A DNA stretch of 64,000 nucleotides from Methylophilus sp. QUAN. GTDB lineage: Bacteria; Pseudomonadota; Gammaproteobacteria; Burkholderiales; Methylophilaceae. How positions within the stretch are numbered: the first letter of the stretch is position 1; every line of letters begins with the position of its first letter. The DNA lies in contig NZ_JADKYT010000001.1 in NCBI RefSeq assembly GCF_015354445.1, positions 62,001 through 126,000 on the forward strand. Reading direction: 5' to 3'. Under the pieces are notes generated by a model. That model had not been told where the DNA came from. It saw only the letters and a list, made by a program, of their open reading frames with translations, and made no database searches. The translations under genes were made by a program, and so were the position numbers. Below are positions 19,805 through 41,515 of the stretch, one piece after another.

Positions 19805-20387
19805 TTTCGCCTCTCGGCGAGTCACTTTCTGGTGCTTGTCCCCCAGAAAGTAACCAAAGAGGAAGACACCCAGCCATCACGGCCTAAAGGCTCCCTTGCG
19901 TTGCTCAAATTAGGACTTTCGTCCGTTGCTTTGCCGGACTTAGGCATAAGCCGGTCACGAAACTCAACCTGGCAGCTCACACAAAACGTGAGCCGCTGCG
20001 GGATTCGAACAGTCGCTCCCTCTACTCTTATTTTGTTTCCGCTACTCAGCGTGATGGAATGGGAGTTATCTCGCCAAATGAACGTCGCATAAATACGGAC
20101 GGTTCAAAAAAAACAGATTGGTTTATGAAAATCACGAACGGTGGCGCTCGAACGATGTTCGGGGTCCCCATCTGCCGCGCCGAGCAACGCAGGGTTGACG
20201 GGAGTCTTCGGCCATCGGCTGTCCGAGTTCCGCAACAAGCCACGCTCTGTGTGGCTTGTCAGGGCGAGTTTCGATGGACGCCCGGCAAACCGAGTAGCAC
20301 AGGATACAAGCGGAAGCTGGGGTGCACTTTCTTTTGGTTACTTTTCTTTGTGCAAACAAAGAAAAGTAACTCGCCGAGAGGGCGAAA
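19805..20387. repeat. Dispersed structured repeat, copy A (~583 bp)
   Basis: First of three related copies. Ends are inverted: TTTCGCCTCTCGGCGAGT at the left and its near-complement ending GGCGAAA at the right. Conserved hairpins include CTTTCTGG/CCAGAAAG near the left end, GCTCAC/GTGAGC in the middle (~19975-19995), ACAAGCCAC/GTGGCTTGT (~20235-20262) and a 14-bp GTTACTTTTCTTTG stem near the right end. It fills the gap between the convergent AmpG-like gene and xth. Open frames inside are not conserved between copies along their whole length. This copy has an extra segment near 19900-19955. Confidence 0.88.
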
Positions 20388-20434
20388 CAAAACTTCCCAA
20401 TCACCACTCCCCAGACAAAGAATCACTTTTTTAA

Positions 20435-21208
20435 TCAATCCGCATAATCCACCGTCAATGGTGCATGATCACTAAACCGTTCCGCCTTATATACACTGGC
20501 CGCAATCACCTTTGCGCCCAATGCCGGGGTTGCCAGTTGATAATCAATACGCCAACCGACGTTTTTGGCATACGCCTGCCCGCGATTACTCCACCAGGTA
20601 TAGCATTCATCCGTGGTATCAGGATATAGACCGCGATAGGTATCCACCCAGCCCACACGCCCCAGCACATCGGTCATCCAGGCACGTTCTTCTGGCAAAA
20701 AGCCGGAATTTTTGCGGTTGCCTTTAAAGTTTTTGAGGTCTATCTCCTGATGCGCAATATTCCAGTCACCGCAAATCACCACGTCACGACCAGAAGCGAC
20801 CAACTGCTCAAGATGCGGCAAAAATAAATCCATGACCTGGAACTTGAATTGCTGGCGCTCTTCGCCACTGGAGCCACTGGGCAGGTATAAAGACACCACA
20901 CTCAGATTGCCATACTGGCATTCCAGGTAACGACCTTCAGCGTCAATGTGCGCATGACCCAAACCAATGATGACTTTATCAGCAGGCTGTTTACTGTAGA
21001 TGCCCACACCGCTATAGCCTTTTTTCTCGGCATAGTGGAAATAGCCGTGATAACCGGGCGGCTGCAACATCTCGGGTTGCATGTCGCCAGCTTGCGCTTT
21101 GAGCTCCTGCAAACAGACGATATCGCCGCCACTATTCGCCAGCCACGGCAAAAAGCCTTTGTTACAGGCCGACCGTATGCCATTGAGGTTCAAGGTTATA
21201 ATACGCAT
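20435..21208 (-). CDS. xth: Exodeoxyribonuclease III
   Basis: 257 aa. AP endonuclease and 3'-5' exonuclease of base-excision repair. Motifs: [11 protein letters not shown] at the N-terminus, CLQELKAQ (metal-binding Glu), [11 protein letters not shown], and the C-terminal [11 protein letters not shown] and [10 protein letters not shown] with the catalytic His. It is divergent from pyrE with a 26-bp gap, so their promoters overlap. Confidence 0.96.
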
Positions 21209-21234
21209 TGTCTAAATACTTTCTGCTTTTAAAA

Positions 21235-21882
21235 ATGACTACAAACACATTAAGTGCCGATTTTATTGCTTTTTCCATCCACAAGCAGGTGCTGCGCTTT
21301 GGCGAATTTAAAACCAAAGCGGGGCGCTTAAGCCCCTATTTTTTTAACGCTGGCCTGTTTGATGATGGCGAAAGCATGCTCAAACTGGGCGAATTCTACG
21401 CCAACAGCATTCTACAGTCTGGCCTACAATTCGACATGCTGTTTGGACCCGCTTATAAAGGTATTCCGCTGGTCACGGCCATCAGCATTGCGTTTGCGCG
21501 CATGGGTAAAAACTACCCTTATGCCTACAACCGCAAAGAGGCCAAAGACCACGGCGAAGGCGGCACATTGGTCGGCGCCGCGCTCAAAGGCCGTGTGCTG
21601 ATTATTGATGATGTGATTTCTGCAGGCACGTCTATCCGTGAATCCGTAGAGCTGATCCGCCACGCGGGTGCCACGCCTTGTGCAGTAAGCATTGCTTTGG
21701 ATCGCCAGGAAAAAGGCTTGGGCGAATTGTCCGCGGTGCAAGAAGTGGAGCAAACCAACCAGATGCCAGTCGTCAGTATCGCCAAACTGGCCGATTTGTT
21801 CACGTATCTGCAAGGAAATGATCAATTGGCGCAATACTTCCCGGCGATTGAAGCGTATCGTGCACAATATTGCGTACGATAG
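21235..21882 (+). CDS. pyrE: Orotate phosphoribosyltransferase
   Basis: 215 aa. Makes OMP from orotate and PRPP in pyrimidine synthesis. The PRPP-binding motif [17 protein letters not shown] is present, with [18 protein letters not shown] at the N-terminus and the flexible-loop [12 protein letters not shown] use the ATG at 21235; an in-frame TTG at 21208 would add nine residues. A TATAAT at 21197-21202 inside the xth start is the likely -10. No ribosome site is visible. Confidence 0.95.
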
Positions 21883-21899
21883 ACAGTGAGCCAAACAAT

Positions 21900-21925
21900 A
21901 AAGCGAGCAAAGGCTCGCTTTATTT
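21900..21925. terminator. Bidirectional terminator between pyrE and the YidB-like gene
   Basis: AAAGCGAGC, loop AAAG, GCTCGCTTT, flanked by AT-rich runs on both sides. The two genes converge here. Confidence 0.88.
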
Positions 21926-22313
21926 ATTTAAGCATACCCATTAAACGCGACATAATCAGCGCTGGGTTATTCTCCACCGCACCATTCGGCGTCAATTGAT
22001 TCACGACATCCGGCAAATGTTCGGCAATTTTGCCAGTCAGTTCGTCAGTGCTCATGTTCAGCTTACCAGCAAGCCCTGCCAACACAGAGCTGCCTAATGC
22101 AGCACCAATTTGTTGTGCGTTTACGCTCTGGTTAGCGCCTGTACCCACCCAGGAATCCACCTGTTCAGTCAAACCACCATTTTTCAGGGCTTGCAAAATC
22201 CCAGGCAAACCACCGTACTGCTGAAACAACTCCATGGCCAGTTTTGCCAATGGGCCTTTATCACCCATGACTTTGTTCATCATGGCGCCAGCGACGCTAT
22301 CGAATAATCCCAT
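21924..22313 (-). CDS. YidB-like protein (DUF937)
   Basis: 129 aa. Small Gly/Leu/Asn-rich protein: MGLFDSVAGAMMNKVMG at the start, GGLPGILQALKNGGL, VDSWVGTGANQSV, and a C-terminal LPDVVNQLTPNGAV. These are the DUF937/YidB features. Function is unknown. No signal peptide. Repeat copy B begins 41 bp upstream of its start, so its promoter must lie between the two or in the repeat. Confidence 0.85.
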   Translation of the reverse strand: MGLFDSVAGAMMNKVMGDKGPLAKLAMELFQQYGGLPGILQALKNGGLTEQVDSWVGTGANQSVNAQQIGAALGSSVLAGLAGKLNMSTDELTGKIAEHLPDVVNQLTPNGAVENNPALIMSRLMGMLK

Positions 22314-22353
22314 TATGGTTACTCCTAATATAGTTAATTGTTTTAAACTTTTC

Positions 22354-22902
22354 TTTCGCCTCTCGGCGAGTCACTTTCTGATGCTTGCCCCTCAGAAAGT
22401 AACCAAAGAGGAGGGCACCCAGCCATCACGGCCTGACGGCTGCCTTGCGTTGCTCAACAAAATAAGCGGTCACGAAACTCGCCCTAGCAGCTTGCACACT
22501 ACGCAAGCTGCCGCGGTGCTCAAACAGTCGCTCCCTCTACTCTTATTTTGTCTCCGCTACTCAGCGTGATGGGATGGGATTTATCTCGCCAAACTCACGT
22601 CACATAAATGCGGGCGGTCTAAAAACCAGATTCTTTTTCTTCAATTCGCGAATGGTTGCTGTCGTATGGTGTTCGGGGTCCCCATCTGCCGCGCCGAGCA
22701 ACGCAGGGTTGACGGGAGTCTTCGGCCATCGGCTGTTTGAGCTCCGCAACAAGCCACGTTTTGTGTGGCTTGTCAGGGCGAGTTTCGATGGACGCCCGGC
22801 AAGCCGAGTAGCACAGGAATCAAGCGGAAGCTGGGGTGCACTTTCTTTTGGTTACTTATTCTTTGGGCAAGCAAAGAAAAGTAACTCGCCGAAAAGGCGA
22901 AA
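22354..22902. repeat. Dispersed structured repeat, copy B (~549 bp)
   Basis: Same orientation as copy A. The first hairpin reads CTTTCTGA/TCAGAAAG, where A and C have CTTTCTGG/CCAGAAAG: one compensated pair. The middle hairpin reads CAGCTTGC/GCAAGCTG, where copy C has CAGCTCAC/GTGAGCTG: two compensated pairs. The right-end stem has a one-base bulge. It lies between the rluF-like stop and the YidB-like start. Confidence 0.88.
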
Positions 22903-22953
22903 AGCAACCGCCCCACCAAAGAACAACCTTCCTAAGCTACCCCTAAAACCCCA

Positions 22954-24045
22954 TCAAAACCGCTCGTGTGCACCTAAATACCGCCATTGCCCCGGCGGTA
23001 ATTTACCCAAATTGATACTACCAATCCGAATCCGCTTCAATCCAACCACATGCAAGCCAACCAATTCGCACATGCGACGAATCTGCCGTTTGCGGCCTTC
23101 ACGCAACACAAATCGCAATTGGTCTTCATTCTGCCAAGAGACTTTAGCGGGCCTTAGCTGAACGCCATCCAAACTAAGGCCGTGGTTTAATAACGCCAGG
23201 CCATTATTGCTCAGCTGGCCTTCTACCCGCACCAGATATTCTTTTTCTACATTGGAGTCATCACCAATCAGTTTACGCGCCACACGACCATCCTGTGTGA
23301 GCACCAGCAAACCGGTGGAGTCGATATCCAATCTGCCAGCCGGGGCCAGACCACGCAAATGCCCGCGCTTGAAGTCGATGCCACTGCTATCTTCTGACCA
23401 TTGATTGTCGGGATTAAACAACACGACCGCTGGTTCATAACCATCTTCGGCTTGCCCGCTGACGTAACCAACAGGTTTGTGCAGCAAAATGGTCACCGTT
23501 TCGGCCTGGTGCTCTTTGGCATAGGTACTGATGATAATCTCGGCATCTGGATCTATACGCGTGCCTAAGGTTTCGATGATTTCGCCATTGACCTTGACCC
23601 AGCCGTTGACGATCCAGTCATCGGCTTCACGGCGTGAGCATAGGCCACGGTCTGCCATCACTTTAGATAAACGCGGTTGCAAGTCAGCGTCTGCCTCGGT
23701 TGTGGCTGGTCTGCGAACGGGTGAGCGGTCAGCTGTTTTCGCAGCATATGGGCGATCTTTATCACGCGGCTTTTCGCTACGGCCTGCGCTTGACCTGTTT
23801 ACAGGTGGGCGTCCGCCAGCATGTGCTGGCTTCCCTGCCGATTTGCGCGGTTCTTTATCTTTAAATACTTTGTCTTTGCGGGGTGCCTGCTCTTTTGGGC
23901 CAGCATCTTGCTGCACCTCGGCATACACCTCTTTTTTAGCAGGTGGTTTAGTACGATCACGCAACTCAGGTGACAAGCGCCTAACGGTTTTCTGGCGCGC
24001 TTGATCAGTGGTGGCGGGGGATTTATTGAGTTTGAGCGTAGACAA
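22954..24045 (-). CDS. rRNA large-subunit pseudouridine synthase, RluF/RluB type, with basic N-terminal extension
   Basis: 363 aa. Residues 1-120 are a low-complexity Lys/Arg/Pro/Ala-rich extension, likely disordered and RNA-binding. An S4 domain follows at ~124-170 ([18 protein letters not shown]). The catalytic domain has [14 protein letters not shown] with Asp240 as nucleophile, [10 protein letters not shown], and [13 protein letters not shown]. The QIRRMCE form is closer to RluF than to RluB, so I leave the symbol blank. It modifies a uridine in 23S rRNA. Copy B of the repeat follows its stop. Confidence 0.88.
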
Positions 24046-24090
24046 AACAGTCGTCTCACTAATGAAAGATGAATAAGGTGCTATTGTAAT

Positions 24091-25344
24091 TTATTTGGCT
24101 GCTGACGCACGAAAATTCAGGCTACCAGGTTGCTTGCGTGCACTCTCTGGCATATAGCGCAAAATGCTTTCGGCACGCGCCAACGCTGGTTTTTTGGCCA
24201 TAAACTGCTGTTTCCAGGCACGGTGCGGATTTTTGATGATGCCAGCCAGCCAGGCGGCCTGGATCGGATTCATCTGCGCAGGGGAGAGCCCAAAGTAATA
24301 ATTTGCAGCCGCATGTGCGCCACACAAACTCGGGCCCCAGTCGACCGTATTTAAGTACAGGTTGAGAATTTGTGTTTTATCCAGCGTATTTTCCAGCTGT
24401 ACGGCATACAGCAACTCTTCTATTTTACGCTTCCAGGTACGCTCACCGTTGGTGAACATATACTTCACCACTTGCTGGGTAATGGTGCTGCCCCCCACGG
24501 CCTTGTCAGTACTTTCCTTGCCGAGTAGTTGCTGCATTTGTGTGATGGCATAACCAGGGTGGTGCCTGAACTCGGCATCTTCGGCAATGATGGTCGCCAT
24601 CGGTAACCAGCGGCCCATTTTGTCATAGTTGAGCCAATGTACTTTTTCCGGATGCTTTTGCTCATCCAGCAGCGGGCAATCATATTGCACAGACGAAGCG
24701 GTGACTTTGCTTAAGTCCAGCCCACTCACGTGTAATTGCGATAACTGCGGTTGCACACTCCAGCTTTGACGGGGCCAGCGCAAGATTCCTGTGGCTGAAA
24801 GCGCACCTGAGACAGTGGCTTGAGAGATGGCACTAGAATGCGCACGCAAAGGACTCAGCAAACTGGCCAGAGGCGTGGCTGGCAGGGTCCAGTTCAGCTT
24901 TAATGAGCGCATGGTAGCCTTGCCTTCAAAATCAATTTTGAATGGCTGATTGGCCGCATCCACTAATAAATAACCGTTTAATTGCTGCCCATCGAGCTTT
25001 AACCACAACGCCACAGAGTCCAGCATCAATGGTTTATCACTGACGGATTTGGCTTCCAGCCAACAGTGCTGGCAATGCACACGCAAACCATCAGCATCAT
25101 AAAGCCGGACATCGCCATGATGCAGGCTGAAGCCTTTTTTATCCAACAACCAGCGCCCCGCTGGAGAAGTCGCCAGCATCAGCATGGGCAGTACGCGCAC
25201 TTGTATGCCACTGCCTACTGGCAACTTTACCCGCCAGGCAGTTTTGTCATAAGGTTGCCAAACCCAGGCCGCCACGCCGAGGATGGCCAGCAAAGAGGCA
25301 ATCAACAGGCTAATAATGAGGCGTAAGCACCATTTTTTCAGCAT
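24091..25344 (-). CDS. Monofunctional peptidoglycan glycosyltransferase (GT51, MtgA-like) with extra N-terminal domain
   Basis: 417 aa; typical MtgA is about 240. One membrane segment at ~8-28 is followed by ~200 residues that look like an AsmA/DUF3971-type beta domain. The GT51 domain occupies ~235-400: EDAEFRHHPG with catalytic Glu255, GGSTITQQ (284-291) and RKIEELLYAVQLE. It polymerises lipid II glycan strands on the periplasmic side. No transpeptidase domain is present. It is followed by the pseudouridine synthase. Confidence 0.88.
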   Translation of the reverse strand: MLKKWCLRLIISLLIASLLAILGVAAWVWQPYDKTAWRVKLPVGSGIQVRVLPMLMLATSPAGRWLLDKKGFSLHHGDVRLYDADGLRVHCQHCWLEAKSVSDKPLMLDSVALWLKLDGQQLNGYLLVDAANQPFKIDFEGKATMRSLKLNWTLPATPLASLLSPLRAHSSAISQATVSGALSATGILRWPRQSWSVQPQLSQLHVSGLDLSKVTASSVQYDCPLLDEQKHPEKVHWLNYDKMGRWLPMATIIAEDAEFRHHPGYAITQMQQLLGKESTDKAVGGSTITQQVVKYMFTNGERTWKRKIEELLYAVQLENTLDKTQILNLYLNTVDWGPSLCGAHAAANYYFGLSPAQMNPIQAAWLAGIIKNPHRAWKQQFMAKKPALARAESILRYMPESARKQPGSLNFRASAAK

Positions 25345-25356
25345 TGTGGCGTCACC

Positions 25357-25671
25357 TTAAACCAGCAAACGCTCCACCACCTTGCCTTGTTGCAGATGGT
25401 TTTCAATGATGTCATCAATGTCGCTTTCATCGACAAAGGTGTACCACACCGCGTCCGGGTAAATCACCATCACCGGCCCTTCGGCACAACGGTCCAGGCA
25501 ACCGGCACGATTGATGCGGACTTTGCCTGCGCCCGCCAGACCTTGTTGTTTGACTTGTTTTTTCATATAGTCAAACGCGGCCTCGGCGCCTCTGTTCATG
25601 CAGCAGTCTTCGCCATTTTCGCGCTGGTTAAGACAGAAAAATACGTGGTATTGAAAGTGACTTGTGGTCAT
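25357..25671 (-). CDS. Thioredoxin-like [2Fe-2S] ferredoxin
   Basis: 104 aa. Cysteines at FFCLNQR (13), EDCCM (23-24), AGCLDRC (58, 62) give the C-X~10-C ... C-X3-C pattern of thioredoxin-fold 2Fe-2S ferredoxins. Such proteins carry electrons in the cytoplasm; the partner is unknown. It lies 12 bp upstream of the MtgA-like gene on the same strand. Confidence 0.88.
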   Translation of the reverse strand: MTTSHFQYHVFFCLNQRENGEDCCMNRGAEAAFDYMKKQVKQQGLAGAGKVRINRAGCLDRCAEGPVMVIYPDAVWYTFVDESDIDDIIENHLQQGKVVERLLV

Positions 25672-25709
25672 AACGATTGCCTTGTAAAACCTCGCACCGG
25701 ATGCAACGC

Positions 25710-26681
25710 TTATTCGGTGGAGAGTTGGTCATCTCTGGTAAAGGTCCAGGTACGCGTAATGCTCAGTACATCGGTATCCTGGCGGATATCTTCCGGAAAG
25801 ACCGGAAAGGGGGCAGCCAGCTGGACAATGCGGCGTGCAGATTCATCCAATAGCCTGTGCCCGGAGCTCTGGTGGATACGAATACTTTCTATACTACCAT
25901 CGGCTTTCACTGAAACGGTCATTTGCAGCCTGCCATAAAGCTTTTGTGTCATCGCCGCTTGCGGATAATTCAGGTTACCGACACGTTCAATTCTTTGCCG
26001 CCATTGCTCAACATAATTGGCAAAACGATATGCACGCGTGCGCGCACCAACAAACTGGCGCTTGGGCCGCATTTCGTATTCTTCCTGCTGCTTGGCAATC
26101 AGCGCCTCTAGCTTAGCCATCTCTTGCATGGCTGCCGTTTGCGGCTGCGCTTGCACCGGCACATGTTGCGAAGGTGGCTGCTGCCTGGCCGCCGCATGTG
26201 GCTGCGACAACGGCGGTGTTTGCAGGCTGGTCACGGCCTGACTGGCTTTTAACTGTGTGAGCAGCGCTTGTGCTTCTTGTTCCAATTGCGCCACACGCTG
26301 TTTTTCACGCACCAGCTCGGCCTCGTGCGGACTGCTCGCAGTCGTGACTGATGGTAGCGTCGCCTGTGCGGCATGCGGCATGGACGCCTGCATTTGCTGC
26401 ACACTGGGTAGCGGGCTCTTCATCTGCCGTTTTTCATCGGTATTGCCGCCGCGGTCCAGATTGGCTTGCGCCAGTGCATCGGCTTTTTCAGGCGCACTTT
26501 GCGTTTTGCTGTTCACCAGCATCACTTCTAATGAAGGAATCTGGTCTTTAAAGGCTTTAAGTTCCGGTTGAAAATGTAGCGTGAGCACGACCGCATGTGC
26601 CAGTAGCGAAAACCACAACGCCCACACCAGTGGTGAGCGTTTGCGGAAACTCTCCGGTAACCCCATGCGGCGCTTGTCCAA
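25710..26681 (-). CDS. TonB-family energy transducer
   Basis: 323 aa. One N-terminal membrane helix (SPLVWALWFSLLAHAVVLTL), a long central Gln/Ala/Pro-rich part with a coiled-coil stretch (VREKQRVAQLEQEAQALLTQ), and a C-terminal TonB domain (YPQAAMTQKLYGRLQMTVSV, GSIESIRIHQSSGHRLLDES). It would couple inner-membrane proton force to outer-membrane receptors. The start is TTG at 26681, adjacent to the mpl stop with AGGGA just upstream; ATG at 26666 is an alternative. No ExbB/ExbD genes are adjacent. Confidence 0.88.
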   Translation of the reverse strand: MDKRRMGLPESFRKRSPLVWALWFSLLAHAVVLTLHFQPELKAFKDQIPSLEVMLVNSKTQSAPEKADALAQANLDRGGNTDEKRQMKSPLPSVQQMQASMPHAAQATLPSVTTASSPHEAELVREKQRVAQLEQEAQALLTQLKASQAVTSLQTPPLSQPHAAARQQPPSQHVPVQAQPQTAAMQEMAKLEALIAKQQEEYEMRPKRQFVGARTRAYRFANYVEQWRQRIERVGNLNYPQAAMTQKLYGRLQMTVSVKADGSIESIRIHQSSGHRLLDESARRIVQLAAPFPVFPEDIRQDTDVLSITRTWTFTRDDQLSTE

Positions 26682-28052
26682 CTATCCCTGCAAGGCCTGC
26701 AACAATTTTTGGTGTACGCCACCAAAGCCGCCATTACTCATCACCAGCACATGATCGCCTGGTTGCGCCATAGCGGTGACCGCAGCCACCAACTGACCCA
26801 GCTCATCATAGGTTTGCGCTTTTTGCTGGATGGGGGCTAAGGCAGCGGTGGCATCCCATCCTAAATTATTGGCATAGCAAAACACAGCATCCGCATCACG
26901 CAGGCTGTCGGGCAAGGCATCTTTCATCACGCCCAGCTTCATGGTGTTAGAGCGCGGCTCCAGCACGGCCAGAATGCGGGCGGCGCCCACTTTGGCACGT
27001 AACCCGGCCACCGTGGTGGCAATCGCCGTCGGGTGATGCGCAAAGTCATCATAGACGGTGACGTCATTAGCCACGCCTTTTATTTCCATACGGCGCTTCA
27101 CATTTTTAAACTCACCAAGGGCTTCAATCGCGATACAGGGTGCGACGCCGACATGACGTGCGGCGGCAATGACCGCTAATGCGTTGCTGCGGTTATGTTC
27201 ACCAAGCAAGTCCCAGCTCACATTGCCCTGGCGCTCACCGTTTAAATACACATCGAAACGGCCTTGTGCATCAACGTTTTGCACTTGCCAACCACTGACA
27301 CTGTCTATGCGCTCCAAGGCACTCCAGCAACCGCGCGCAATCACGCGATCCAGGCTGTCCTGCTGGTTAGCCACAACCAGGCCTTGTTGCGGTACGGTGC
27401 GTACCAAGTGATGAAACTGTTTCTCGATCGCGGGTAGGTCTTCAAAAATATCGGCGTGATCGAATTCAAGGTTATTGAGCACGGCCGTGCGTGGACGGTA
27501 ATGCACGAACTTGGATCGCTTGTCGAAGAAAGCGGTATCGTATTCATCGGCCTCGATGACAAAAAACGGGGAAACCGATTTCTGGTCTTGTTTAGGCGTT
27601 TGTGGCAAACGGGCAGACACGCCGAAGTTTTCTGGCACACCACCAATCAGGAAACCAGGCGCCAAACCTGCATATTCGAGCACCCATGCCAGCATGGAAG
27701 AAGTGGTCGTCTTGCCATGCGTACCCGCGACCGCCAATACCCATTTGCCTTGCAAAACATTCTCGGCCAGCCATTGCGGACCCGAGATATAAGGTAAACC
27801 CTGGTTGAGAATTTCTTCCATCAGCGGATTACCACGTGTGACCACGTTACCAATCACATAGATATCTGGATTCAGGCTGGTTTGGGCAGGGTCGAAGCCC
27901 TCAATCAATTCGATGCCTTGCGCTTCGAGCTGTGTACTCATGGGGGGGTAAACATTGGCATCACACCCGGTGACACGATGACCGGCCGCTTTGGCCAGCA
28001 CGGCGATGCCGCCCATAAAAGTGCCACAAATACCAAGGATGTGAATGTGCAT
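26682..28052 (-). CDS. mpl: UDP-N-acetylmuramate:L-alanyl-gamma-D-glutamyl-meso-diaminopimelate ligase
   Basis: 456 aa from MHIHILGICGTFMGG, the family's usual N-terminus; the longer frame from 28094 adds unsupported residues. Mur-ligase fold: nucleotide motif GTHGKTTTSSML, central domain YDDFAHHPTAI, C-terminal ILAVLEPRSNTM. It reattaches recycled tripeptide to UDP-MurNAc, which fits the AmpG-like importer at 18.5 kb. The tonB-type gene follows directly. Confidence 0.94.
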   Translation of the reverse strand: MHIHILGICGTFMGGIAVLAKAAGHRVTGCDANVYPPMSTQLEAQGIELIEGFDPAQTSLNPDIYVIGNVVTRGNPLMEEILNQGLPYISGPQWLAENVLQGKWVLAVAGTHGKTTTSSMLAWVLEYAGLAPGFLIGGVPENFGVSARLPQTPKQDQKSVSPFFVIEADEYDTAFFDKRSKFVHYRPRTAVLNNLEFDHADIFEDLPAIEKQFHHLVRTVPQQGLVVANQQDSLDRVIARGCWSALERIDSVSGWQVQNVDAQGRFDVYLNGERQGNVSWDLLGEHNRSNALAVIAAARHVGVAPCIAIEALGEFKNVKRRMEIKGVANDVTVYDDFAHHPTAIATTVAGLRAKVGAARILAVLEPRSNTMKLGVMKDALPDSLRDADAVFCYANNLGWDATAALAPIQQKAQTYDELGQLVAAVTAMAQPGDHVLVMSNGGFGGVHQKLLQALQG

Positions 28053-33582: not shown

Positions 33583-33656
33583 GTAGCCCACTATGACTAA
33601 TCGACGCGATGATTAATCCAACTCCAATTGGATTAATCGATACTCATGTGGGCTAC
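33583..33656 (-). repeat. 74-nt nested inverted repeat between tpsB and tpsA
   Basis: Outer arms GTAGCCCA(C)/(G)TGGGCTAC and inner arms GATTAATCC/GGATTAATC form a long hairpin in the tpsB-tpsA intergenic RNA. A second hairpin TCCAGGC/GCCTGGA lies at 33666-33683. Neither is followed by a U-run on the minus strand. Confidence 0.7.
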
Positions 33657-33707
33657 TTTTATATGTCCAGGCTTTTGCCTGGATCATTGCTTACTACAGA
33701 TTTAAAA

Positions 33708-35417
33708 CTAGAAATTTTTTCTTACTTGCGCCCAGAGTTGGTACTCAGTATTACTTTCCGCGCCATCCAGGTCACGCTTTTGCTGTGAATAAGTGGTGGT
33801 CAAAACCCACTGCCCCGGGAACTGGATATCAGTACCAACACCAATATGGTTAGAGCGGACATAAACACTATTACCGATTGGATCATGATTCAGCTTGCCG
33901 CGACCAGCATCATAAAAAGCAAATGGCGTCACTGACTGAATATAAGGTGTGACATCAGCGCCCGTGGTCGCAAACGTTCTACGCACATCGGTGCCTACCA
34001 TCCAGCCCTGATCTGCCTGGCTAGGAATCTCTGAGAACTGGCGCCAGCGGTTGATGGCACCAATCCCGAAACGCTCTGCAATATCCAGGTTATTACCCGC
34101 ACCTTGGTAATCGGCACGCACCACCCAGTTCACACCATTCTCAAACACTTGGGTGCGGCTCGAGGTCCAGTTCCATTTCACAAAACTGCCTTGGGTATCC
34201 AGCTGATTTCTATCATTGGCCTTTGCAGCAGAGTCTTTATATGAGACGTTACCGCCAGTGACCAGGAAACTCCATTGGTAAGCTACGCTACCGATATCAT
34301 TAATCCAGTCGCCTACCAAGCCTAACTCCAGGCTACTAATATCGCGGCGATTATTAATGGAAAATGCATCGACATCATCATCCAGAATCTTGTAGTTACC
34401 ACCTACTTTGAACGCAACACCTTTTTTGGTTTCACGCAGTAATGGATGCTCAAGTGAGCCATAAAAATAATGCGCATCACCAGACGCATCAAATTGCTTG
34501 AAGTCACCGCCGAGCTTGTAATCTACATAGCTGTATGCCAAGTTCATGATCGTGCCAGCGCTGCCGACAGGCGTAAAGTACAAACCACTGATAGAACGCT
34601 GCCCTTCATCTCTGGAGGTTTTACCGACCACCGCCAATTGGTCACCACGGCCACGGAGGTTATTCACCGCCACACCAAAGCCTAACGTTTCACGATTTGT
34701 GTAACGGTTACCATAGTTGTTGGCACTGACAAAACCGGTGACACGAGGCGTGCGTGGTTCCACAGAAACCGCCACATCTGAACTACCGACAGCCTCACCC
34801 GGGTTCAACTGTGAAGTGACCTGTATACCAGGCAAGCCGTTCATTACCATGATGTTGCGCACCAAATTGCGCTCATTGAGCACATCGCCCTTATTCAGGC
34901 CATATTCTGACAGGGATTGAAAATATTCCTGATCCAGGCCTTGCCCGGTCTCAGCTTTCACCTCACCTAGCGTACCTTCCAGGATGGAAAGCTCGACGAC
35001 GGCCTCTGCCTCTGTAGTTTTCTGTAAATCCTGAGTTGGCAAATATACTTGTGTCAGCAAGTAACCACGCTGACGATAGTAATTACGCACTGTACCGACG
35101 GCTTCGTTCAATTCACGCATGCCAATTTCATGACCGGTCAGGTGTGCAAGTTGCGCCGCCAGCACTTCATCTGAAAATTGTTTATTGCCAGAGAATTTGA
35201 ATGCCTTGACAACAATCTTGAGGCTGGACTTTTTTTGTTTCTTTTCTGGCGTAGGTGTTTCTTCTGGCACCTGAATAATCGGTCTTGGTTCAGGCAAAAT
35301 AGGTCTAGGCAAATTCTGCTGAATGTCTGGTATTTGAACACCACCGGCCAGCACTTGCGATGTATAGCTTAATGCCAACAGTTGCAACAAGCCTATACGC
35401 TTTAATTGTATTTTCAA
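33708..35417 (-). CDS. Two-partner secretion outer-membrane transporter TpsB (ShlB/FhaC family)
   Basis: 569 aa. Signal peptide to about residue 24. A Pro-rich linker is followed by POTRA domains (~68-215: VVKAFKFSGNKQFSDEVL, YYRQRGYLLTQVYLP, ILEGTLGEV) and a 16-strand barrel ending in Phe (WAQVRKNF). It secretes TpsA across the outer membrane. The start is TTG with GGGGAG 5 nt upstream. tpsA follows after 243 bp that hold a long inverted repeat. Confidence 0.93.
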   Translation of the reverse strand: MKIQLKRIGLLQLLALSYTSQVLAGGVQIPDIQQNLPRPILPEPRPIIQVPEETPTPEKKQKKSSLKIVVKAFKFSGNKQFSDEVLAAQLAHLTGHEIGMRELNEAVGTVRNYYRQRGYLLTQVYLPTQDLQKTTEAEAVVELSILEGTLGEVKAETGQGLDQEYFQSLSEYGLNKGDVLNERNLVRNIMVMNGLPGIQVTSQLNPGEAVGSSDVAVSVEPRTPRVTGFVSANNYGNRYTNRETLGFGVAVNNLRGRGDQLAVVGKTSRDEGQRSISGLYFTPVGSAGTIMNLAYSYVDYKLGGDFKQFDASGDAHYFYGSLEHPLLRETKKGVAFKVGGNYKILDDDVDAFSINNRRDISSLELGLVGDWINDIGSVAYQWSFLVTGGNVSYKDSAAKANDRNQLDTQGSFVKWNWTSSRTQVFENGVNWVVRADYQGAGNNLDIAERFGIGAINRWRQFSEIPSQADQGWMVGTDVRRTFATTGADVTPYIQSVTPFAFYDAGRGKLNHDPIGNSVYVRSNHIGVGTDIQFPGQWVLTTTYSQQKRDLDGAESNTEYQLWAQVRKNF

Positions 35418-35553
35418 GATGACTCCCCAAAGCTTTAAAATTCCATAATCTTTTTAATGGTATAACAAGGTCAAAAGTTACTTTAAAAAACCACCAAACG
35501 CTAACTTTTTTTTACAACAAATCGACCAATTAGTAGCATATTTGTAACTTTCA

Positions 35554-37827
35554 CTAATATTCCAGCGCATCCACATCCAGCACCCAGCGGATTTTTGCTT
35601 GCAGCGGATGTGTCCTGACCCACTCGACCGCCACCTGCAATAGCTGCTGCAAGGCGCCGCGATGTGCAGACTGCAGCATCACATACCCGCGCTCCATACG
35701 ATTTAGCCTGGCAATGCCTGGACGCACCGGGTCATAGACCAAAGGCTGCTCGGACAAGGCTGCCACTTGTGCAGCGACATAATCCCTGGCCGCTTGACTA
35801 AAGTCAGTCAAAAACTGGTTCACCAGCGTGTAGTCGGTCGCCTCAGCCTTCATCACAGCGATATAGGTTGCTGGCGGGAATTGCATCACCATGCGCTCCT
35901 GCAACAAGTCATCGGCAAACGCCGCATAGTTTTGCTCGCGCAGTGCAGCAAACAAGGCATGCTGCGGAAAGGCGGTTTGTATCAGCACCTCGCCCGGCTT
36001 ATCCCCACGACCGGCGCGACCTGCCACCTGCATCAACTGTGCAAACAGGCGTTCACTGGCCCGATAATCAGGGCTGTATAGTGCGCCATCGATGTCCAAC
36101 ACCCCTACCAGCGTCAAATTGGCAAAATCATGGCCTTTGGCCAACATTTGCGTGCCAATCAGAATATCAACTTGGCCAGCATGTACCGCGGACAACAGCT
36201 CGGTTAAAGCATCCTTAGCCTGAATGGTGTCGCGGTCCACGCGGGCGACACGCGCCTGCGGAAAAAGCTGCTGCAAGCTTTCCTCAACCCGCTGGGTGGC
36301 CTGACCAACCGGGCGCAAATCGGGATTACCGCAGCTCGGACATTGCACAGGAATCGGTTGCTCATCGCCACAATGGTGGCAACGTAATACGCGCTGGCGC
36401 AAATGCAATACCGCTTTGGCAGAGCAGCGGCGGCAATCCGCCAGCCACTGGCAAGCGGAACAATGCAGCACGGGCGCATAACCGCGTCGATTAATAAACA
36501 GCAAGCTTTGCTCACCGCGCTGCAAACGTAGCTCAATGGCCTGTTTTAGTTGCGGCGTCAGTCCGGCTTCCGGCGGGCTGTGCGTAGTATCAATACAAAA
36601 AATACGGGGCAATTTGGCCTGGGCTGCCGCCCGTTTGGTCAGCGTCAGCAATCGGTAACTGGCTTTTTTTGCATTCGATGCAGCTTGTGCCTGATCTCCC
36701 ATAGCGTTGTACCAGCTTTCCAGCGAAGGCGTTGCGCTACCTAATACCACCGGGATCCGGCATTGTTTGGCGCGCACCAGTGCGACATCTCGCGCATGGT
36801 AGCGCATGCCATCCTGCTGCTTGTACGAAGTGTCATGCTCTTCATCCAGAATCATCAATTTCAGATGCGGCATGGGCGTAAACACACTTAAACGCGTGCC
36901 GATGATAATACGCGCAACACCGGATTGTGCCGCCTGCCAGTTTTGCAAGCGCTCACTCTCGCTCAAATGGCTATGCAAGGTCACCAGTGGAAACTGGCTC
37001 AAGCGACTACGGAAGCGACTTTCTAATTGCGGTGTGAGATTGATTTCGGGCACCATGATCAACGCCTGTGCTTGCGGCTCCGCGAGCACGGTTTGCAGCA
37101 AGCGGATATACACCTCGGTTTTACCAGAGCCGGTGACACCGAATAACAACCAGGGTTGGAAACGATCTAAATCGCCCAAAATCGCCTGGACCGCCTGTGC
37201 CTGCTCATCATTCAGTGTCGGCTCCAGATCCGATGCGGGCAGGGAAGGGCGCGTCGCAATCACTTCGCGCCTGGACACGTAGCCAGCATCCAGCAGTGGC
37301 TGTATGGCTTTGCGCCAGGCACCGGACACTTCGCCCAACATCGCCTCACTGCATTCACCCTGCTGCTGCAGGGACGCAACCAGCCTGGTCAGCACTTGTT
37401 GCCGCTTACCAATAAAGTCTTCCGGAATGGTATTCGCCAACTGATACAGCCACATTTTTCGCGTCACCGCCGGTTTAATCTGGCGCAAACGCAGTGGCAA
37501 GCTGGCCAGCACGGTCTGGCCAAAAGGGTAGTGATAATAGTCGGCGCAAAACCGCAGCAACTTCAAGGTCGCGGCATCAAACGGCACATCGTCAAACACC
37601 TGCAGCACGGCTTTAAGCTTGTGTTGTGCAATATCAGTCTCTGTCAATAACGCCATGACGATGCCCACCAATTGCCGCCCGGCGAAGGGCACCACGACGC
37701 GATTGCCTTCGCGAATCAACAGGCCAGGATTTAAATAATCAAACTGACGATCCAGTGGCACGTCCAGCACCACACGCACAATACTGGCGGGGGTTGCGGC
37801 CTGAAGGTCGGTGACAGTTGAACACAT
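35554..37827 (-). CDS. priA: Primosomal protein N' (PriA helicase)
   Basis: 757 aa. Restarts stalled replication forks. N-terminal 3'-end-binding domain, helicase domain with Walker A LFGVTGSGKTEVY and DEEH box (LMILDEEHDTSYKQ), then the zinc-binding cysteines (CSACQWLADCRRC ... CHHCGDEQPIPVQCPSC) and QMLAKGHDF. It is divergent from argS; the shared 59-bp gap holds an inverted repeat. Confidence 0.96.
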   Translation of the reverse strand: MCSTVTDLQAATPASIVRVVLDVPLDRQFDYLNPGLLIREGNRVVVPFAGRQLVGIVMALLTETDIAQHKLKAVLQVFDDVPFDAATLKLLRFCADYYHYPFGQTVLASLPLRLRQIKPAVTRKMWLYQLANTIPEDFIGKRQQVLTRLVASLQQQGECSEAMLGEVSGAWRKAIQPLLDAGYVSRREVIATRPSLPASDLEPTLNDEQAQAVQAILGDLDRFQPWLLFGVTGSGKTEVYIRLLQTVLAEPQAQALIMVPEINLTPQLESRFRSRLSQFPLVTLHSHLSESERLQNWQAAQSGVARIIIGTRLSVFTPMPHLKLMILDEEHDTSYKQQDGMRYHARDVALVRAKQCRIPVVLGSATPSLESWYNAMGDQAQAASNAKKASYRLLTLTKRAAAQAKLPRIFCIDTTHSPPEAGLTPQLKQAIELRLQRGEQSLLFINRRGYAPVLHCSACQWLADCRRCSAKAVLHLRQRVLRCHHCGDEQPIPVQCPSCGNPDLRPVGQATQRVEESLQQLFPQARVARVDRDTIQAKDALTELLSAVHAGQVDILIGTQMLAKGHDFANLTLVGVLDIDGALYSPDYRASERLFAQLMQVAGRAGRGDKPGEVLIQTAFPQHALFAALREQNYAAFADDLLQERMVMQFPPATYIAVMKAEATDYTLVNQFLTDFSQAARDYVAAQVAALSEQPLVYDPVRPGIARLNRMERGYVMLQSAHRGALQQLLQVAVEWVRTHPLQAKIRWVLDVDALEY

Positions 37828-37846
37828 GGGTGAAAATGCTTAATTA

Positions 37847-37886
37847 GGTTAAAATGGCGGTTTGACTATTCAGCACCATTTTAACC
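37847..37886. repeat. 11-bp perfect inverted repeat in the priA-argS gap
   Basis: GGTTAAAATGG and CCATTTTAACC separated by 18 nt, ending at the base before the argS start codon. Each arm contains a TAAAAT hexamer, one facing argS and one facing priA, so it may hold divergent -10 elements, or form a hairpin over the argS start. Confidence 0.7.
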
Positions 37887-39545
37887 TTGAAACAAACGAT
37901 CACAGCACTCATTCTGCAAGCGGTGAAACCGCTGGTAGAAGATACCTCCAGCCTCAATATCATTCTTGAGCGGCCAAAGTCTGCCGACCACGGCGATTTT
38001 GCGACCAATATCGCCATGCAACTGGCCAAGCCTTTAAAGCAAAACCCACGTGCGATTGCGCAGCAGATTATTGATGGCTTGCCCGCCAACAATGTCATTA
38101 GCAAAGTCGATATAGCGGGTGCAGGCTTTATTAACTTCTTTGTCTCGGCTGACAGCAAACAGGCAATTGTGCACGAGGTGCTGCAAGCAGGGGCTGGGTT
38201 TGGCCGCAACCAGGCTGGCCAGGCTGAAAAAGTGCAGGTGGAGTTTGTCTCGGCCAACCCGACCGGACCGTTGCACGTCGGTCATGGCCGTGGCGCCGCA
38301 GTGGGTGACTGCTTGTGCCGCCTGCTGGATGCCAATGGCTGGGACGTGACGCGTGAGTTTTATTACAACGATGCTGGTGCCCAGATCGACAATCTGACCA
38401 AGTCAGTCTTGGCACGTGTGCAAGGCATCAACCCTGATGATGCAGGCTTCCCGGAAGACGGCTACCGCGGCGACTATATTGTCGATATTGCGCAAGCCTA
38501 CCTGGCCAAAGCCACTATTATTGCTGACGACATGCAAGTGACCGCCAGCGGCGATGTGAATGATACCGAGTCCATCCGCAAATTTGCCGTGGCTTATTTG
38601 CGTCACGAGCAAGATCTGGACTTGCAAGCTTTCCAGATCAAGTTTGATGTGTTTTCACTCGAAAGTGCCTTATATAGCGAAGGCAAAGTAGAAAACACCG
38701 TGCAATCCCTGATCGCCAGCGGCCACACCTACGAGCTGGATGACGCCTTGTGGCTGCGCACCACCGAATTTGGCGATGATAAAGACCGCGTCATGCGCAA
38801 AAAAGAAGGTGGTTTCACCTATTTTGTGCCGGATGTCGCTTATCACCGCGAAAAATGGAACCGTGGTTTTAAACGCGTGATCAACGAGCAGGGCGCAGAC
38901 CATCACAGCACGATTACCCGTGTGCGTGCAGGCTTGCAGGCGCTGGACGTCGGCATCCCGCAAGGCTGGCCGGAATACGTACTACACCAGATGGTGACCG
39001 TGATGCGCGGTGGCGAAGAGGTCAAATTGTCCAAACGCGCCGGTAGCTACGTCACTTTGCGTGACCTGATTGAAGAGGTCGGCTGCGACGCCACGCGTTA
39101 TTTCCTGGCTGCCCGCAGCCCGGATTCGCAACTGGTGTTTGATATCGACCTGGCACGCGCGCAAACCAACGACAACCCGGTCTATTACATTCAGTATGCA
39201 CATGCCCGCATCTGCAGCGTGCTCAACCAGTGGAACGGCGATGCAGCCAATTTAACGGCGGCTGAACTGTCGCCACTGCAAAGCGCCACAGAAACAGCGC
39301 TAATGCAAGCGCTGGGCCAATACCCTGAAGTGGTGAGCAGTGCCTGCCAGGCATTGGCACCACATATGGTGGCCAACTACCTCAAGGAGCTAGCCAGTGC
39401 CTTGCATAGTTATTACAATGACACCAAATTTTTGGTGGATGACGAACAAGTCAAACTGGCACGTTTGGCGCTGATCACCGCCACCCGCACGGTGTTGCGT
39501 AATGGCTTGGCGTTATTGGGCGTTGGCGCGCCGGAAAAAATGTAA
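37887..39545 (+). CDS. argS: Arginyl-tRNA synthetase
   Basis: 552 aa, class I. N-terminal Add1 domain, HIGH-type motif as [12 protein letters not shown] near residue 130, and KLSKRAG in place of the classical KMSKS. The DALR anticodon-binding domain is at the C-terminus ([11 protein letters not shown]). The only reasonable start is TTG at 37887; a stop lies eight codons upstream in frame and there is no ribosome site. The inverted repeat abutting the start may matter for regulation. Confidence 0.95.
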
Positions 39546-39587
39546 GCATCCCTTTAATGACTGCTGAATTGATTGGTTAACCTCACA

Positions 39588-40178
39588 ATGAGTCGCGACT
39601 ACAAACCCTCACAAGCCAAAGCAAAAAGCAAAAGCAGCGGCAGCACTTTCTTTAACGGCCTGCTGGTCGGCCTGTTTTTGGGTGTCGCGTTAACCGTGGC
39701 CCTGATTATCTACATCAAAGGTGATCACAGCCCATTCTCCAGCGCATTCAAAAAAGACGAGGGCCAGCAAGAAATCCCGATCAAGAACACCGTCACCGAA
39801 GAAGAAGTCAAACCTGGTAGCGCCTCTATTGAGGACCCGAACAAGTTTGATTTCTATACCATTTTGCCCGACACCGAGAGCAAAATCAGTGAACAGCAAG
39901 TGAAAAAAAACCCGACCATCAAGCAAGAAAGCTATTTTGTGCAAGTCGGCGCCTTTGCCAAAGAAGATGATGCCAACAATCTCAAAACCCGCTTGGCCCT
40001 GGTTGGTTTTGAAGCGTTTGTACAAACCGCAGAAATCCCCAACAAAGGCACCATGCACCGGGTGCGTATTGGCCCGCTCAATGACTTGGCCAAAATCAAC
40101 AAAATTAGCCACGATCTGGAAACCAATGGCTTCCAGGCCAATCTGATCAAGGTCAATATCGAATCTTCCACCCATTAA
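39588..40178 (+). CDS. SPOR-domain membrane protein
   Basis: 196 aa. Short basic N-terminus (DYKPSQAKAKSKSSG), one membrane helix at ~25-45 (GLLVGLFLGVALTVALIIYI), a charged linker, and a C-terminal SPOR domain (YFVQVGAFAKEDDANNLKTR ... RVRIGPLNDL). SPOR domains bind denuded glycan at the septum, so it is probably a cell-division or wall-associated protein. I chose ATG 39588; a TTG five codons upstream is less likely. It follows argS by 42 bp, a common pairing. Confidence 0.88.
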   Translation: MSRDYKPSQAKAKSKSSGSTFFNGLLVGLFLGVALTVALIIYIKGDHSPFSSAFKKDEGQQEIPIKNTVTEEEVKPGSASIEDPNKFDFYTILPDTESKISEQQVKKNPTIKQESYFVQVGAFAKEDDANNLKTRLALVGFEAFVQTAEIPNKGTMHRVRIGPLNDLAKINKISHDLETNGFQANLIKVNIESSTH

Positions 40179-40250
40179 TGCGGTTGTCATCGTATGCACA
40201 GCTGCCACGTTAATGCATGATGTTCCACAAAACTTTAGGAAACTGACTTT

Positions 40251-40898
40251 ATGAAAAATATGTTGTTGAGTTTGATGCTTTGGGCTGGCTTTACGGCGAC
40301 CTCAGCACTGGCAGACCCGCAAATGGGTGAACAGTTTGATCAGGTTGCGCAGCAAATCACGACCGACCAACCGGCCAAAATTGAAGTCATGGAATTGTTC
40401 TGGTACGGCTGCCCGCACTGTTACCACATGGAGCAGCCTTTACAAGCCTGGGTGAAAAAACTGCCCGCAGATGTATACTTCAAACGCATCCCAGCCTTGC
40501 CAAACGCAGGCTGGGCTCCGTTAGCTAAAACCTATTTTGCCATGCAAGAACTCGGCGTGCTGGAAAAACTGCATAGCCAGTTATTTGACGCCATCCACAA
40601 AAGCAAAACCCTGAGCCAACAGGCTGACGAAGCGTCTTTGATCGATTGGGTGACCAAGCAAGGTGGTCTCGATAAAATCAAAGTTGAAAAAGCATTCAAG
40701 TCATTCGCGATTAACATGCAAATGAATAAAGCCATGCAAACTTTCCGCGCTTCAGGCGCGACTGGCGTTCCTGCCCTGATTATCGACGGTAAATTCATCA
40801 CCGGTAGCTCCATGGCCGGTGGCAATGAAGCAGCCCTGCAAACCGCTGACTTTATTATTCAGAATGTGCGCAAAGACAGAGCAGCTGGTAAAAAGTAA
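40251..40898 (+). CDS. dsbA: Thiol:disulfide interchange protein DsbA
   Basis: 215 aa. Signal peptide ends near SALA (residue 21). The thioredoxin-fold active site is Cys54-Pro-His-Cys57 in FWYGCPHCYHME, and the cis-Pro loop is TGVPALIIDG. It oxidises cysteine pairs of periplasmic proteins; XoxF (vicinal Cys pair) and TpsA (C-terminal pair) are possible clients. It follows the SPOR gene and ends in a strong terminator. Confidence 0.94.
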   Translation: MKNMLLSLMLWAGFTATSALADPQMGEQFDQVAQQITTDQPAKIEVMELFWYGCPHCYHMEQPLQAWVKKLPADVYFKRIPALPNAGWAPLAKTYFAMQELGVLEKLHSQLFDAIHKSKTLSQQADEASLIDWVTKQGGLDKIKVEKAFKSFAINMQMNKAMQTFRASGATGVPALIIDGKFITGSSMAGGNEAALQTADFIIQNVRKDRAAGKK

Positions 40899-40913
40899 AT
40901 CTCCGCTTGAATT

Positions 40914-40948
40914 AAAAAACGCCCGATGCCCCACATCAGGCGTTTTTT
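40914..40948 (+). terminator. Terminator after dsbA
   Basis: AAAAAACGCC-GATG paired with CATC-GGCGTTTTTT with one mismatch, ending in six T. Confidence 0.9.
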
Positions 40949-40967
40949 ATTGAGTACTAGCTTTTTC

Positions 40968-41515
40968 TTTCGCCTCTCGGCGAGTCACTTTCTGGTGCTT
41001 GTCCCCCAGAAAGTAACCAAAGAGGACGACACCCAGCCATCACGGCCTTCGGCTCCCTTGCGTTGCTCGTCAAAATAAGCGGTCACGAAACTCAACCTGG
41101 CAGCTCACACAAAACGTGAGCTGCTGCGGGATTCGGACAGTCGCTCCCTCTACTCTTATTTTGTCTCCGCTACTCAGCGTGATGGAATGGGATTATTCTC
41201 GCCAAACTCACATAGTAGAAGTTCGGATGGTTCAAAAACCAGATTCTTTTTCTTCAATTCGCGAATGGTTGCAGTCGTATGGTGTTCGGGGTCCCAATCT
41301 GCCGCGCCGAGCAACGCAGGGTTGGCGGGAGTTCTCGGCCATCGGCTGTCTGAGCTCCGCAACAAGCCACGTTCTATGTGGCTTGTCAGGGCGAGTTTCG
41401 ATGGACGCCCGGCAATTCGAGTAGCACAGGATACAAGCGGAAGTTGGGGTGCACTTTCTTTTGGTTACTTGTTCTTTGTGCAAGCAAAGAAAAGTAACTC
41501 GCCAAAAAGGCGAAA
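40968..41515. repeat. Dispersed structured repeat, copy C (~548 bp)
   Basis: Same orientation as copies A and B. Starts TTTCGCCTCTCGGCGAGTCA and ends AGTAACTCGCCAAAAAGGCGAAAA. It carries the same set of hairpins; the middle one reads CAGCTCAC/GTGAGCTG. It lies between dsbA and the convergent K+ channel gene. Confidence 0.88.

What the first reader, a model, noticed from the sequence alone, without database searches (positions are those of the whole stretch)
19805..41515. Three dispersed ~550-bp elements with covarying hairpins: a structured repeat of unknown function
Copies at 19805-20387, 22354-22902 and 40968-41515 share inverted ends (TTTCGCCTCTCGGCGAGT...GGCGAAA), the same orientation and the same internal hairpins. 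Compensatory changes preserve pairing: CTTTCTGG/CCAGAAAG versus CTTTCTGA/TCAGAAAG, and CAGCTCAC/GTGAGCTG versus CAGCTTGC/GCAAGCTG. Changes that keep the stem and not the codons point to selection on RNA or DNA structure. All three lie in intergenic gaps, two of them between convergent genes. No transposase is nearby. I recall similar sequences mis-annotated as small proteins in other Proteobacteria, so the family may be broad and its role undescribed.
Basis: partly seen in the sequence, partly recalled or inferred. Interest (0 to 1): 0.8.

Follow-up and report, generated by a model that had tools for sequence, protein, structure and literature searches.

The report
Widespread hairpin-ended intergenic DNA repeat
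The three look-alike stretches belong to a large, apparently undescribed family of non-coding DNA repeats with hairpin-shaped ends that tends to sit at the ends of genes, and in this genus most of the copies examined point the same way relative to DNA replication.

Summary
The copies belong to a family with 27 two-ended members in this 3.15-Mb genome, matched in 20 of 22 same-genus genomes. Its terminal module, two hairpins, occurs in 57 of 397 Pseudomonadota genomes. Stems differ widely yet stay complementary. Counted at fixed positions without selecting for pairing, three hairpins give 2202 Watson-Crick, 21 G.T, 123 C.A and 30 other cells; 104 of the C.A lie at two positions. Both strands fold about equally well. 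This favours DNA hairpins over an RNA gene. Site 3 was probably gained in one clade; solo end-hairpins occupy sites that hold a full element in related species. Copies favour convergent gene ends, and in four genomes 60 of 69 examined copies follow the replication arm, but in a distant genome orientation is random. This genome has no detectable Y1 transposase. Best reading: a non-autonomous, DNA-structure-based interspersed element (MITE/BIME-like) of a broad superfamily, dispersed by an unidentified, possibly replication-coupled enzyme. No description was found in ten open-access searches.

The parts
19805..20387 (+). copy 1 of the element, hairpin A5 to hairpin A3
19805..19820 (+). copy 1 hairpin A5 (TTTCGCC-TCTC-GGCGA)
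   Evidence: model match
19821..19854 (+). copy 1 hairpin B5, loop TGCTTGTCCC, C.A at pair 3
19972..19996 (+). copy 1 internal hairpin C
20235..20259 (+). copy 1 internal hairpin D; its loop is of the reverse-complement type of the C loop
20337..20370 (+). copy 1 hairpin B3
20371..20387 (+). copy 1 hairpin A3 (TCGCC-GAGAG-GGCGAAA)
20417..20429 (+). outer motif AAAGAATCACTTT right of copy 1
22354..22902 (+). copy 2 of the element
22354..22369 (+). copy 2 hairpin A5
22370..22403 (+). copy 2 hairpin B5 (compensated stem ...CTGA/TCAG...)
22487..22511 (+). copy 2 hairpin C (GCAGCTTGC/GCAAGCTGC)
22749..22773 (+). copy 2 hairpin D
22851..22885 (+). copy 2 hairpin B3
22886..22902 (+). copy 2 hairpin A3
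22918..22930 (+). outer motif AAAGAACAACCTT right of copy 2
40968..41515 (+). copy 3 of the element; probable gain within one clade
40968..40983 (+). copy 3 hairpin A5
40984..41017 (+). copy 3 hairpin B5
41100..41124 (+). copy 3 hairpin C (GCAGCTCAC/GTGAGCTGC)
41362..41386 (+). copy 3 hairpin D
41464..41498 (+). copy 3 hairpin B3
41498..41514 (-). hairpin A3 read inward: terminator-like stem followed by TTACTTTTCT
   Evidence: 3 such sites in the region, 1.2 expected in shuffles, sd 1.1
40925..40944 (+). intrinsic-terminator-like site after the upstream gene, some 24 nt before copy 3

Best explanation
It is a non-coding, non-autonomous interspersed DNA element, about 500-600 bp between its end hairpins and probably somewhat longer, working like a MITE or BIME. 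Its ends are inverted modules, each of two hairpins: A = TTTCGCC-N-GGCGA, and B = a covarying stem, mostly with a GCTTG-type loop. Variable hairpins C and D lie in the two halves. SHOWN: the anatomy, compensatory change with little wobble, dispersal through this genome and genus, solo hairpins at orthologous sites, excess of convergent and lack of divergent gene contexts, and orientation tied to the replication arm in Methylophilus genomes. INFERRED: a gain at site 3, an enzyme supplied in trans that recognises the folded ends as DNA, spread favoured on one strand at the replication fork, deletion between A5 and A3 that leaves one hairpin A, and exchange between copies that shuffles hairpins. 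The A hairpins followed by pyrimidine tracts may also stop transcripts entering from flanking genes; this is conjecture.
For: Own genome: 56 ends = 27 inward-facing pairs 230-600 bp wide + 2 unpaired ends. Site 3: element in 4 of 21 relatives besides the own genome, none found in the other 17. Solo hairpins: 14 places in 22 genomes against 6 for the reversed pattern; 4 of the 14 look coding by eye; of the other 10, 8 have flanks matching a locus that holds the element in another species (the loci compared were mostly ones fetched for holding an element, roughly 6% of a genome by my estimate). Covariation; at fixed positions, distinct arm pairs pair better than in any of 1000 shuffles for B5 (112 of 120 against 105.3) and C (176 of 225 against 116.9), and than all but 13 of 1000 for D (50 of 63 against 29.6). 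Wobble at fixed positions: 21 G.T and 123 C.A among 2376 cells; 50 hairpins of other genera: 652 WC, 2 G.T, 20 C.A, 11 other. The wobble-tolerating strand is the outward-reading one in B5, C and D (C.A 121 to G.T 13 in the 5' half, G.T 8 to C.A 2 in the 3' half), so it follows the end symmetry and not one continuous strand. Both strands fold far better than shuffles. Orientation 60 of 69 (p 2e-10). Convergent context 24 of 46 against 123 of 694 adjacent ORF pairs, divergent 1 of 46 against 110 of 694.
Against: No mobilising enzyme identified; no target duplication recognised. 6 of 7 G021 loci share their site with G014 (97% identity), so current movement is not shown. Orientation is random in G205 (25 of 40; shuffles average 25.6), and in G005 (11 of 14, p 0.06) and G021 (7 of 9, p 0.18) alone it is not significant. 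Orientation counts are not independent (sites inherited in common), and four copies lie in stretches with skew near zero (0.001 and -0.002). Few stem alleles and exchange between copies could hide wobble intermediates. The wobble counts and the shuffles come from a search that favours paired stems and understate mismatches; one search does not, and shows more. Full-length predicted RNA folds contain 9.5-10.8% G-U pairs. Of seven solo alignments only L109 is clean on both sides; loops of A5 and A3 in one copy usually differ.
Confidence: 0.55

Rival explanations
1. A structured non-coding RNA gene family: each copy is transcribed from one strand and the stems are kept for RNA folding.
For: Strong covariation, conserved loops, RNA folding z -10.1 on the + strand and -7.8 on the - strand for copy 3. 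C.A exceeds G.T in the 5' half, as if the minus strand tolerated wobble.
Against: Low wobble outside two positions; the wobble-tolerating strand switches between the halves (few data for D); both strands fold alike, the minus strand slightly better in 29 of 40 sampled copies; no promoter-like site around copy 3 (0 found); no Rfam family reaches its gathering score; orientation follows the replication arm and not neighbouring genes (tandem context: same strand 11 of 21).
Confidence: 0.17
2. A classical MITE, mobilised by a DDE transposase whose own ends match the outer arms; the hairpins are incidental or regulatory.
For: Inverted ends, no recognised coding capacity, an outer motif beyond the hairpins on both sides, similar outer arms in 30 G205 copies fetched, a 230-bp derivative that keeps both ends.
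Against: No end pair wider than 600 bp, hence no transposase-bearing copy, in the own genome; no duplication recognised; end hairpins covary across genera instead of keeping one sequence; replication-arm orientation is not typical of DDE elements (recalled).
Confidence: 0.22
3. A host-selected chromosomal element, such as a portable two-way terminator or a replication or nucleoid organising site, kept for function at gene ends.
For: Convergent-gene bias, inward terminator-like hairpin A plus pyrimidine tract, orientation by replication arm, and for the window copy only two end fragments in plasmids and none in phages.
Against: Site turnover between species, solo hairpins, few or no matches in some same-genus genomes (G006 and G018 none; G001, G015 and G019 two or three), random orientation in G205. 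Convergent bias can also come from selection against promoter damage.
Confidence: 0.15

Closest known systems
REP / BIME / REPIN elements with RAYT (TnpA-REP)
   Same: Chromosomal, intergenic, palindromic, mosaic, inverted arrangement; a recurrent stem mismatch and a conserved loop recall the strand-specific recognition of folded ssDNA reported for TnpA-REP (PMC8266576, passages seen).
   Different: About 550 bp against 20-40 bp (PMC3733652, start of abstract in listing); no GTAG tag seen at the ends; no Y1 transposase match in the own genome or several copy-rich relatives.
Bacterial MITEs
   Same: No recognised coding capacity, inverted ends, many copies, a short derivative that keeps both ends, clade-specific presence at site 3.
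   Different: No parent transposon or target duplication found; the ends are covarying double hairpins, and the end module spans many genera.
IS200/IS605 family (IS608, ISDra2)
   Same: Subterminal secondary structures and use of the lagging-strand template (PMC6006769, start of abstract in listing) resemble the hairpin ends and the replication-arm orientation here.
   Different: Ends here are inverted copies of each other; no Y1 transposase match in the own genome; the halves are partly inverted copies.
Stem-loop sequence families of PMC2267715 (passages seen)
   Same: Intergenic families with conserved hairpins, including double hairpins.
   Different: Its family sequences were not compared; Methylophilus does not appear in the part of its genome table that was shown.

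Membership tests
REP/BIME with RAYT | RAYT (Y1_Tnp) gene in genomes that carry the repeat | tested here: not met
   PF01797: no match in G000, G004, G008, G017 or G007, which have many matches to the element; 10 of 22 genus genomes match at E <= 0.001, 9 over the cut-off. Copies could be relics of a lost enzyme
REP/BIME with RAYT | short (20-40 nt) palindrome with a GTAG or CGTC tag | tested here: not met
   498-612 bp unit; no such tag seen by eye at the ends. GTAGCGAT lies near four solo hairpins of G017
MITE | terminal inverted repeats, no coding capacity | tested here: met
   27 inverted end pairs. Five overlapping ORFs: no Pfam hit above cut-off, no NCBIfam hit. Lengths modulo 3 spread 23/24/31 over 78 of 106 copies; longest open stretch median 104 codons against 87 in mononucleotide shuffles, that is somewhat longer than chance
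MITE | target-site duplication | tested here: inconclusive
   None recognised by eye in flanks or at site 3; intergenic divergence limits the test
MITE | related autonomous transposon with the same ends | tested here: inconclusive
   None in the own genome; L369 carries an IS1595-type transposase between end modules, but it lies inside its own 24-nt inverted repeats and looks nested
Structured ncRNA | match to an Rfam family | tested here: not met
Structured ncRNA | covariation with tolerated wobble on one transcribed strand | tested here: inconclusive
   Double changes abundant and one-sided standard-pair changes absent; one search finds some wobble, on the minus strand in the 5' half and the plus strand in the 3' half
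Structured ncRNA | discrete transcript | not testable with these tools
   no RNA data
IS200/IS605-like ssDNA element | strand-specific hairpin ends and replication-linked orientation | tested here: inconclusive
   Orientation 60 of 69 in four Methylophilus genomes, random in G205; recurrent stem mismatch

The most novel reading that the evidence does not exclude
A large, undescribed superfamily of DNA-hairpin elements in Gamma- and Betaproteobacteria that spreads as folded single-stranded DNA at the replication fork, read by an enzyme that recognises loop and stem shape more than stem sequence, so that stems drift but stay self-complementary and copies are laid down in one orientation per replication arm.
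Probability: 0.27. Interest if true: 0.82.

Novelty: new variant of a known kind. Interest (0 to 1): 0.6.

Why it matters
If right, intergenic space in many Pseudomonadota holds an unnamed element family, dozens of copies in some genomes, whose end structure is shared across orders while its stem sequence is not. It would be a case of DNA-level covariation, a warning for covariation-based RNA discovery, and a replication-polarised repeat in Methylophilus, a natural system in which to ask whether orientation comes from insertion or from selection.

Tried and rejected
Coding origin: five overlapping ORFs gave no Pfam hit above cut-off and no NCBIfam hit. Known RNA: the Rfam gathering scan of the window gave only a tRNA, the relaxed scan of copy 3 only sub-threshold hits. 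REP/RAYT: no Y1 transposase match in the own genome. Solo hairpins as a REP-like target family: only 14 places in 22 genomes, 6 for the reversed control pattern. Phage or plasmid carriage of the window copy: no phage match, two plasmid records with end fragments; one viral contig holds an end pattern. Distant copies find more in plasmids: 18 records with 8-10% of L202, three with L226, one of them over its whole length in a 2.5-Mb Variovorax record. Precise empty site between G014 and G021: the first of two loci tried had no flank match in G021, the second was occupied in both. Cargo: L204 ends bracket a DpnII/MboI-type restriction enzyme gene; L369 holds an IS1595-type transposase, nested; neither explains the family. 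Replication polarity as a general rule: not borne out by G205. RNA strand preference: slight and undecided. Literature: 10 searches found no description; three papers were opened by term search only (PMC2267715 and PMC8266576, passages; PMC10969869, no hits).
Full report
Observation. The three copies at 19805-20387, 22354-22902 and 40968-41515 exist as described, all in + orientation. A search of the own genome with copy 3 found about 25 near-complete copies besides fragments. A model of the terminal module, R1, found 56 ends there: 27 inward-facing pairs 230-600 bp wide and two unpaired ends. In 41 genomes searched, 20 of 22 of the same genus match (G006 and G018 do not); of 19 others, four match, the best at E 1.5e-28. 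Contig lengths equal those of Methylophilus records, so the genus is very probably Methylophilus.

Anatomy. Read inward, each end is hairpin A, TTTCGCC-N-GGCGA, then hairpin B, for example GTTACTTTTCTTTG-CTTGC-CAAAGAA.AAGTAAC, GTCACTTTCTGG-TGCTTGTCCC-CCAGAAAGTAAC or TTCTTTCTTATG-CTTGTC-CATAAGAAAGAA. The halves carry internal hairpins C (loops such as ACACTAC) and D (loops such as GTTCTGT, the reverse-complement type), with several stem alleles. Long arms of the two halves are complementary: 58 nt at 71% in copies 1 and 3, 49 nt at 73% in copy 1, 23-28 nt at 78-82% in copies 2 and 3. Copies look like mosaics of exchanged segments (partly shown; judged by eye). Outside hairpin A a motif AAAGAATNACCTT, read outward, occurs within 60 nt: right 17 of 34 and left 8 of 34 with at most two mismatches, control 2 of 610 windows. 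I chose the motif from these same flanks, so the p-values are post hoc. In 30 copies fetched from G205 similar arms also run on beyond hairpin A. The element is therefore probably longer than the 548-583 bp first reported.

Structure. On 22 terminal modules hairpin B forms 96.6% standard pairs, 8 of 12 pairs change on both sides, 47 cells are doubly changed and none is a standard pair changed on one side only; one of five measures does not exceed shuffles. A first count in 106 genus copies gave 2840 Watson-Crick, 3 G.T, 76 C.A and 13 other cells, but it selects stems by complementarity. At fixed positions, with no such selection, B5 gives 932 Watson-Crick, 72 C.A (71 at pair 3) and 4 G.T in 84 copies; C gives 864, 49 C.A (33 at pair 2), 9 G.T and 23 other in 105 copies; D gives 406, 2 C.A, 8 G.T (6 at pair 2) and 7 other in 47 copies. 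Distinct arm pairs beat all of 1000 shuffles for B5 and C and all but 13 for D. In 50 hairpins from other genera, found with the complementarity-favouring search, there are 652 Watson-Crick, 2 G.T, 20 C.A and 11 other cells, most C.A again at stem position 3 or 4. Mismatches that are wobbles on the outward-reading strand outnumber the reverse in both halves (5' half 121 to 13, 3' half 8 to 2), so the tolerance follows the end symmetry and not one continuous strand; D rests on 7 distinct arm pairs and cells are not independent events. Copy 3 folds far better than shuffles on both strands, and over 40 sampled copies neither strand is clearly preferred. I read this as selection on, or generation of, DNA palindromes, with RNA not excluded.

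Breadth. R1 matches 57 of 397 Pseudomonadota genomes, own genome included, and 39 of 232 genera, at E <= 1e-4 with strict filters. Plasmids: two records with about 60 nt of one end for the window copy; 18 and three records for two distant copies, among them Variovorax and Comamonas. Phages: none. Viral contigs: one pattern hit. E. coli: none for an 81-nt query of the 3' end.

Gain and loss. At site 3 a match exists in G013, G020, G002 and G008 besides the own genome, and none in the other 17 same-genus genomes. In the ten of these where the next gene aligned, eight gaps are 45-135 nt and two are longer, 300 and 1243 nt, without the element. At another locus, compared in 11 relatives, the own genome is closest (88-90%) to exactly those four, others at most 86%, so a gain in a common ancestor is the simplest account. 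Site 2 lacks the element in G013, G014, G021 and G009 and has it reversed in G005. Solo hairpins TTTCGCC-N-GGCGAAA number 14 places in 22 genomes against 6 for the reversed pattern. Four look coding by eye; 8 of the other 10 have flanks matching a locus that holds the element in another species. In the one alignment of seven that is clean on both sides (L109 against L004) the solo is the outer arm of A5 joined to the outer arm of A3; G009 shows a similar remnant at site 1. I infer deletion between the end hairpins; an ancestral hairpin as target is not excluded.

Context and orientation. Of 26 own-genome copies tested 15 lie between convergent genes, 9 in tandem, none divergent, 2 unclassified. 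In stretches fetched from G013 and G008, 24 of 46 copies are convergent against 123 of 694 ORF pairs, and 1 of 46 divergent against 110 of 694. Orientation follows local GC skew in 17 of 21 copies (G013, p 0.007), 25 of 25 (G008), 11 of 14 (G005, p 0.06) and 7 of 9 (G021, p 0.18), together 60 of 69. These are copies from listed matches, some sites are shared by descent, four lie where skew is near zero and a few are near-symmetric, so the joint p-value of 2e-10 is optimistic. By the usual meaning of GC skew the elements point toward the origin; the origin itself was not located. The window has skew -0.062 and all three copies are +, as expected. Neighbouring genes do not explain this: convergent-context copies agree in 21 of 24, and tandem-context copies match gene strand in 11 of 21. 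In G205 there is no such polarity (25 of 40).

Mechanism. The most likely account is a non-autonomous DNA element recognised through its folded ends. Replication-linked, single-strand movement would explain low wobble, a recurrent strand-specific mismatch and the orientation; IS608 and ISDra2 are the known precedent (PMC6006769, start of abstract in listing), and TnpA-REP recognises mismatches and loops of folded ssDNA (PMC8266576, passages). But no Y1 transposase matches in the own genome or in several copy-rich relatives, and the polarity is not general, so the enzyme and the coupling remain inferred. A transcription-insulating role of the A hairpins with their pyrimidine tracts (1663 of 2196 letters pyrimidine; terminator-like site) is possible.

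Novelty. Rfam, Pfam and NCBIfam do not name it, and 10 searches of an open-access library found no description; subscription papers were not searchable, so a prior description cannot be excluded. I rate it a new variant of a known kind.

Noticed in passing
L204:107-1566: In a distant genome (G415) inward-facing end modules bracket a 306-aa DpnII/MboI-type restriction enzyme gene (PF18742, E 5.8e-41), beside a gene that looks like exonuclease III by eye, the same kind of neighbour as at window site 1.
   Followed up: partly
L369:59-3368: In Sinimarinibacterium flocculans the end modules lie 3.3 kb apart around an IS1595-type transposase and two other ORFs, bounded by their own 24-nt inverted repeats (118-141 and 2887-2910): a nested insertion.
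   Followed up: yes
L114, L116, L117, L118 (about 1485-1535): Four solo hairpins of genome G017 share GTAGCGAT a few bases outside the hairpin, reminiscent of a GTAG tag.
   Followed up: no
hits H3-H19: 17 Bacteroides, Parabacteroides and Phocaeicola plasmids carry about 70 nt at 80% identity to the right end of copy L202 (E 8e-6).
   Followed up: no
L242 after the DsbA-like gene: In G012 the site-3 gap holds a different inverted repeat (GGGCACCTCTAAAAATTCAAATT ... AATTTGAATTTTTGGAGGCACCC).
   Followed up: no
G014 and G020 contig ends: Several contigs begin inside or within about 90 nt of a copy, so draft assemblies probably undercount the family.
   Followed up: no
hairpin B, stem position 3-4, many genera: A C.A mismatch on the inward-reading strand (T.G on the other) recurs at one stem position in unrelated genera.
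   Followed up: partly
hairpin C, pair 2, genus copies: 33 of 105 copies have C.A at the second pair of hairpin C, a second preferred mismatch position.
   Followed up: no
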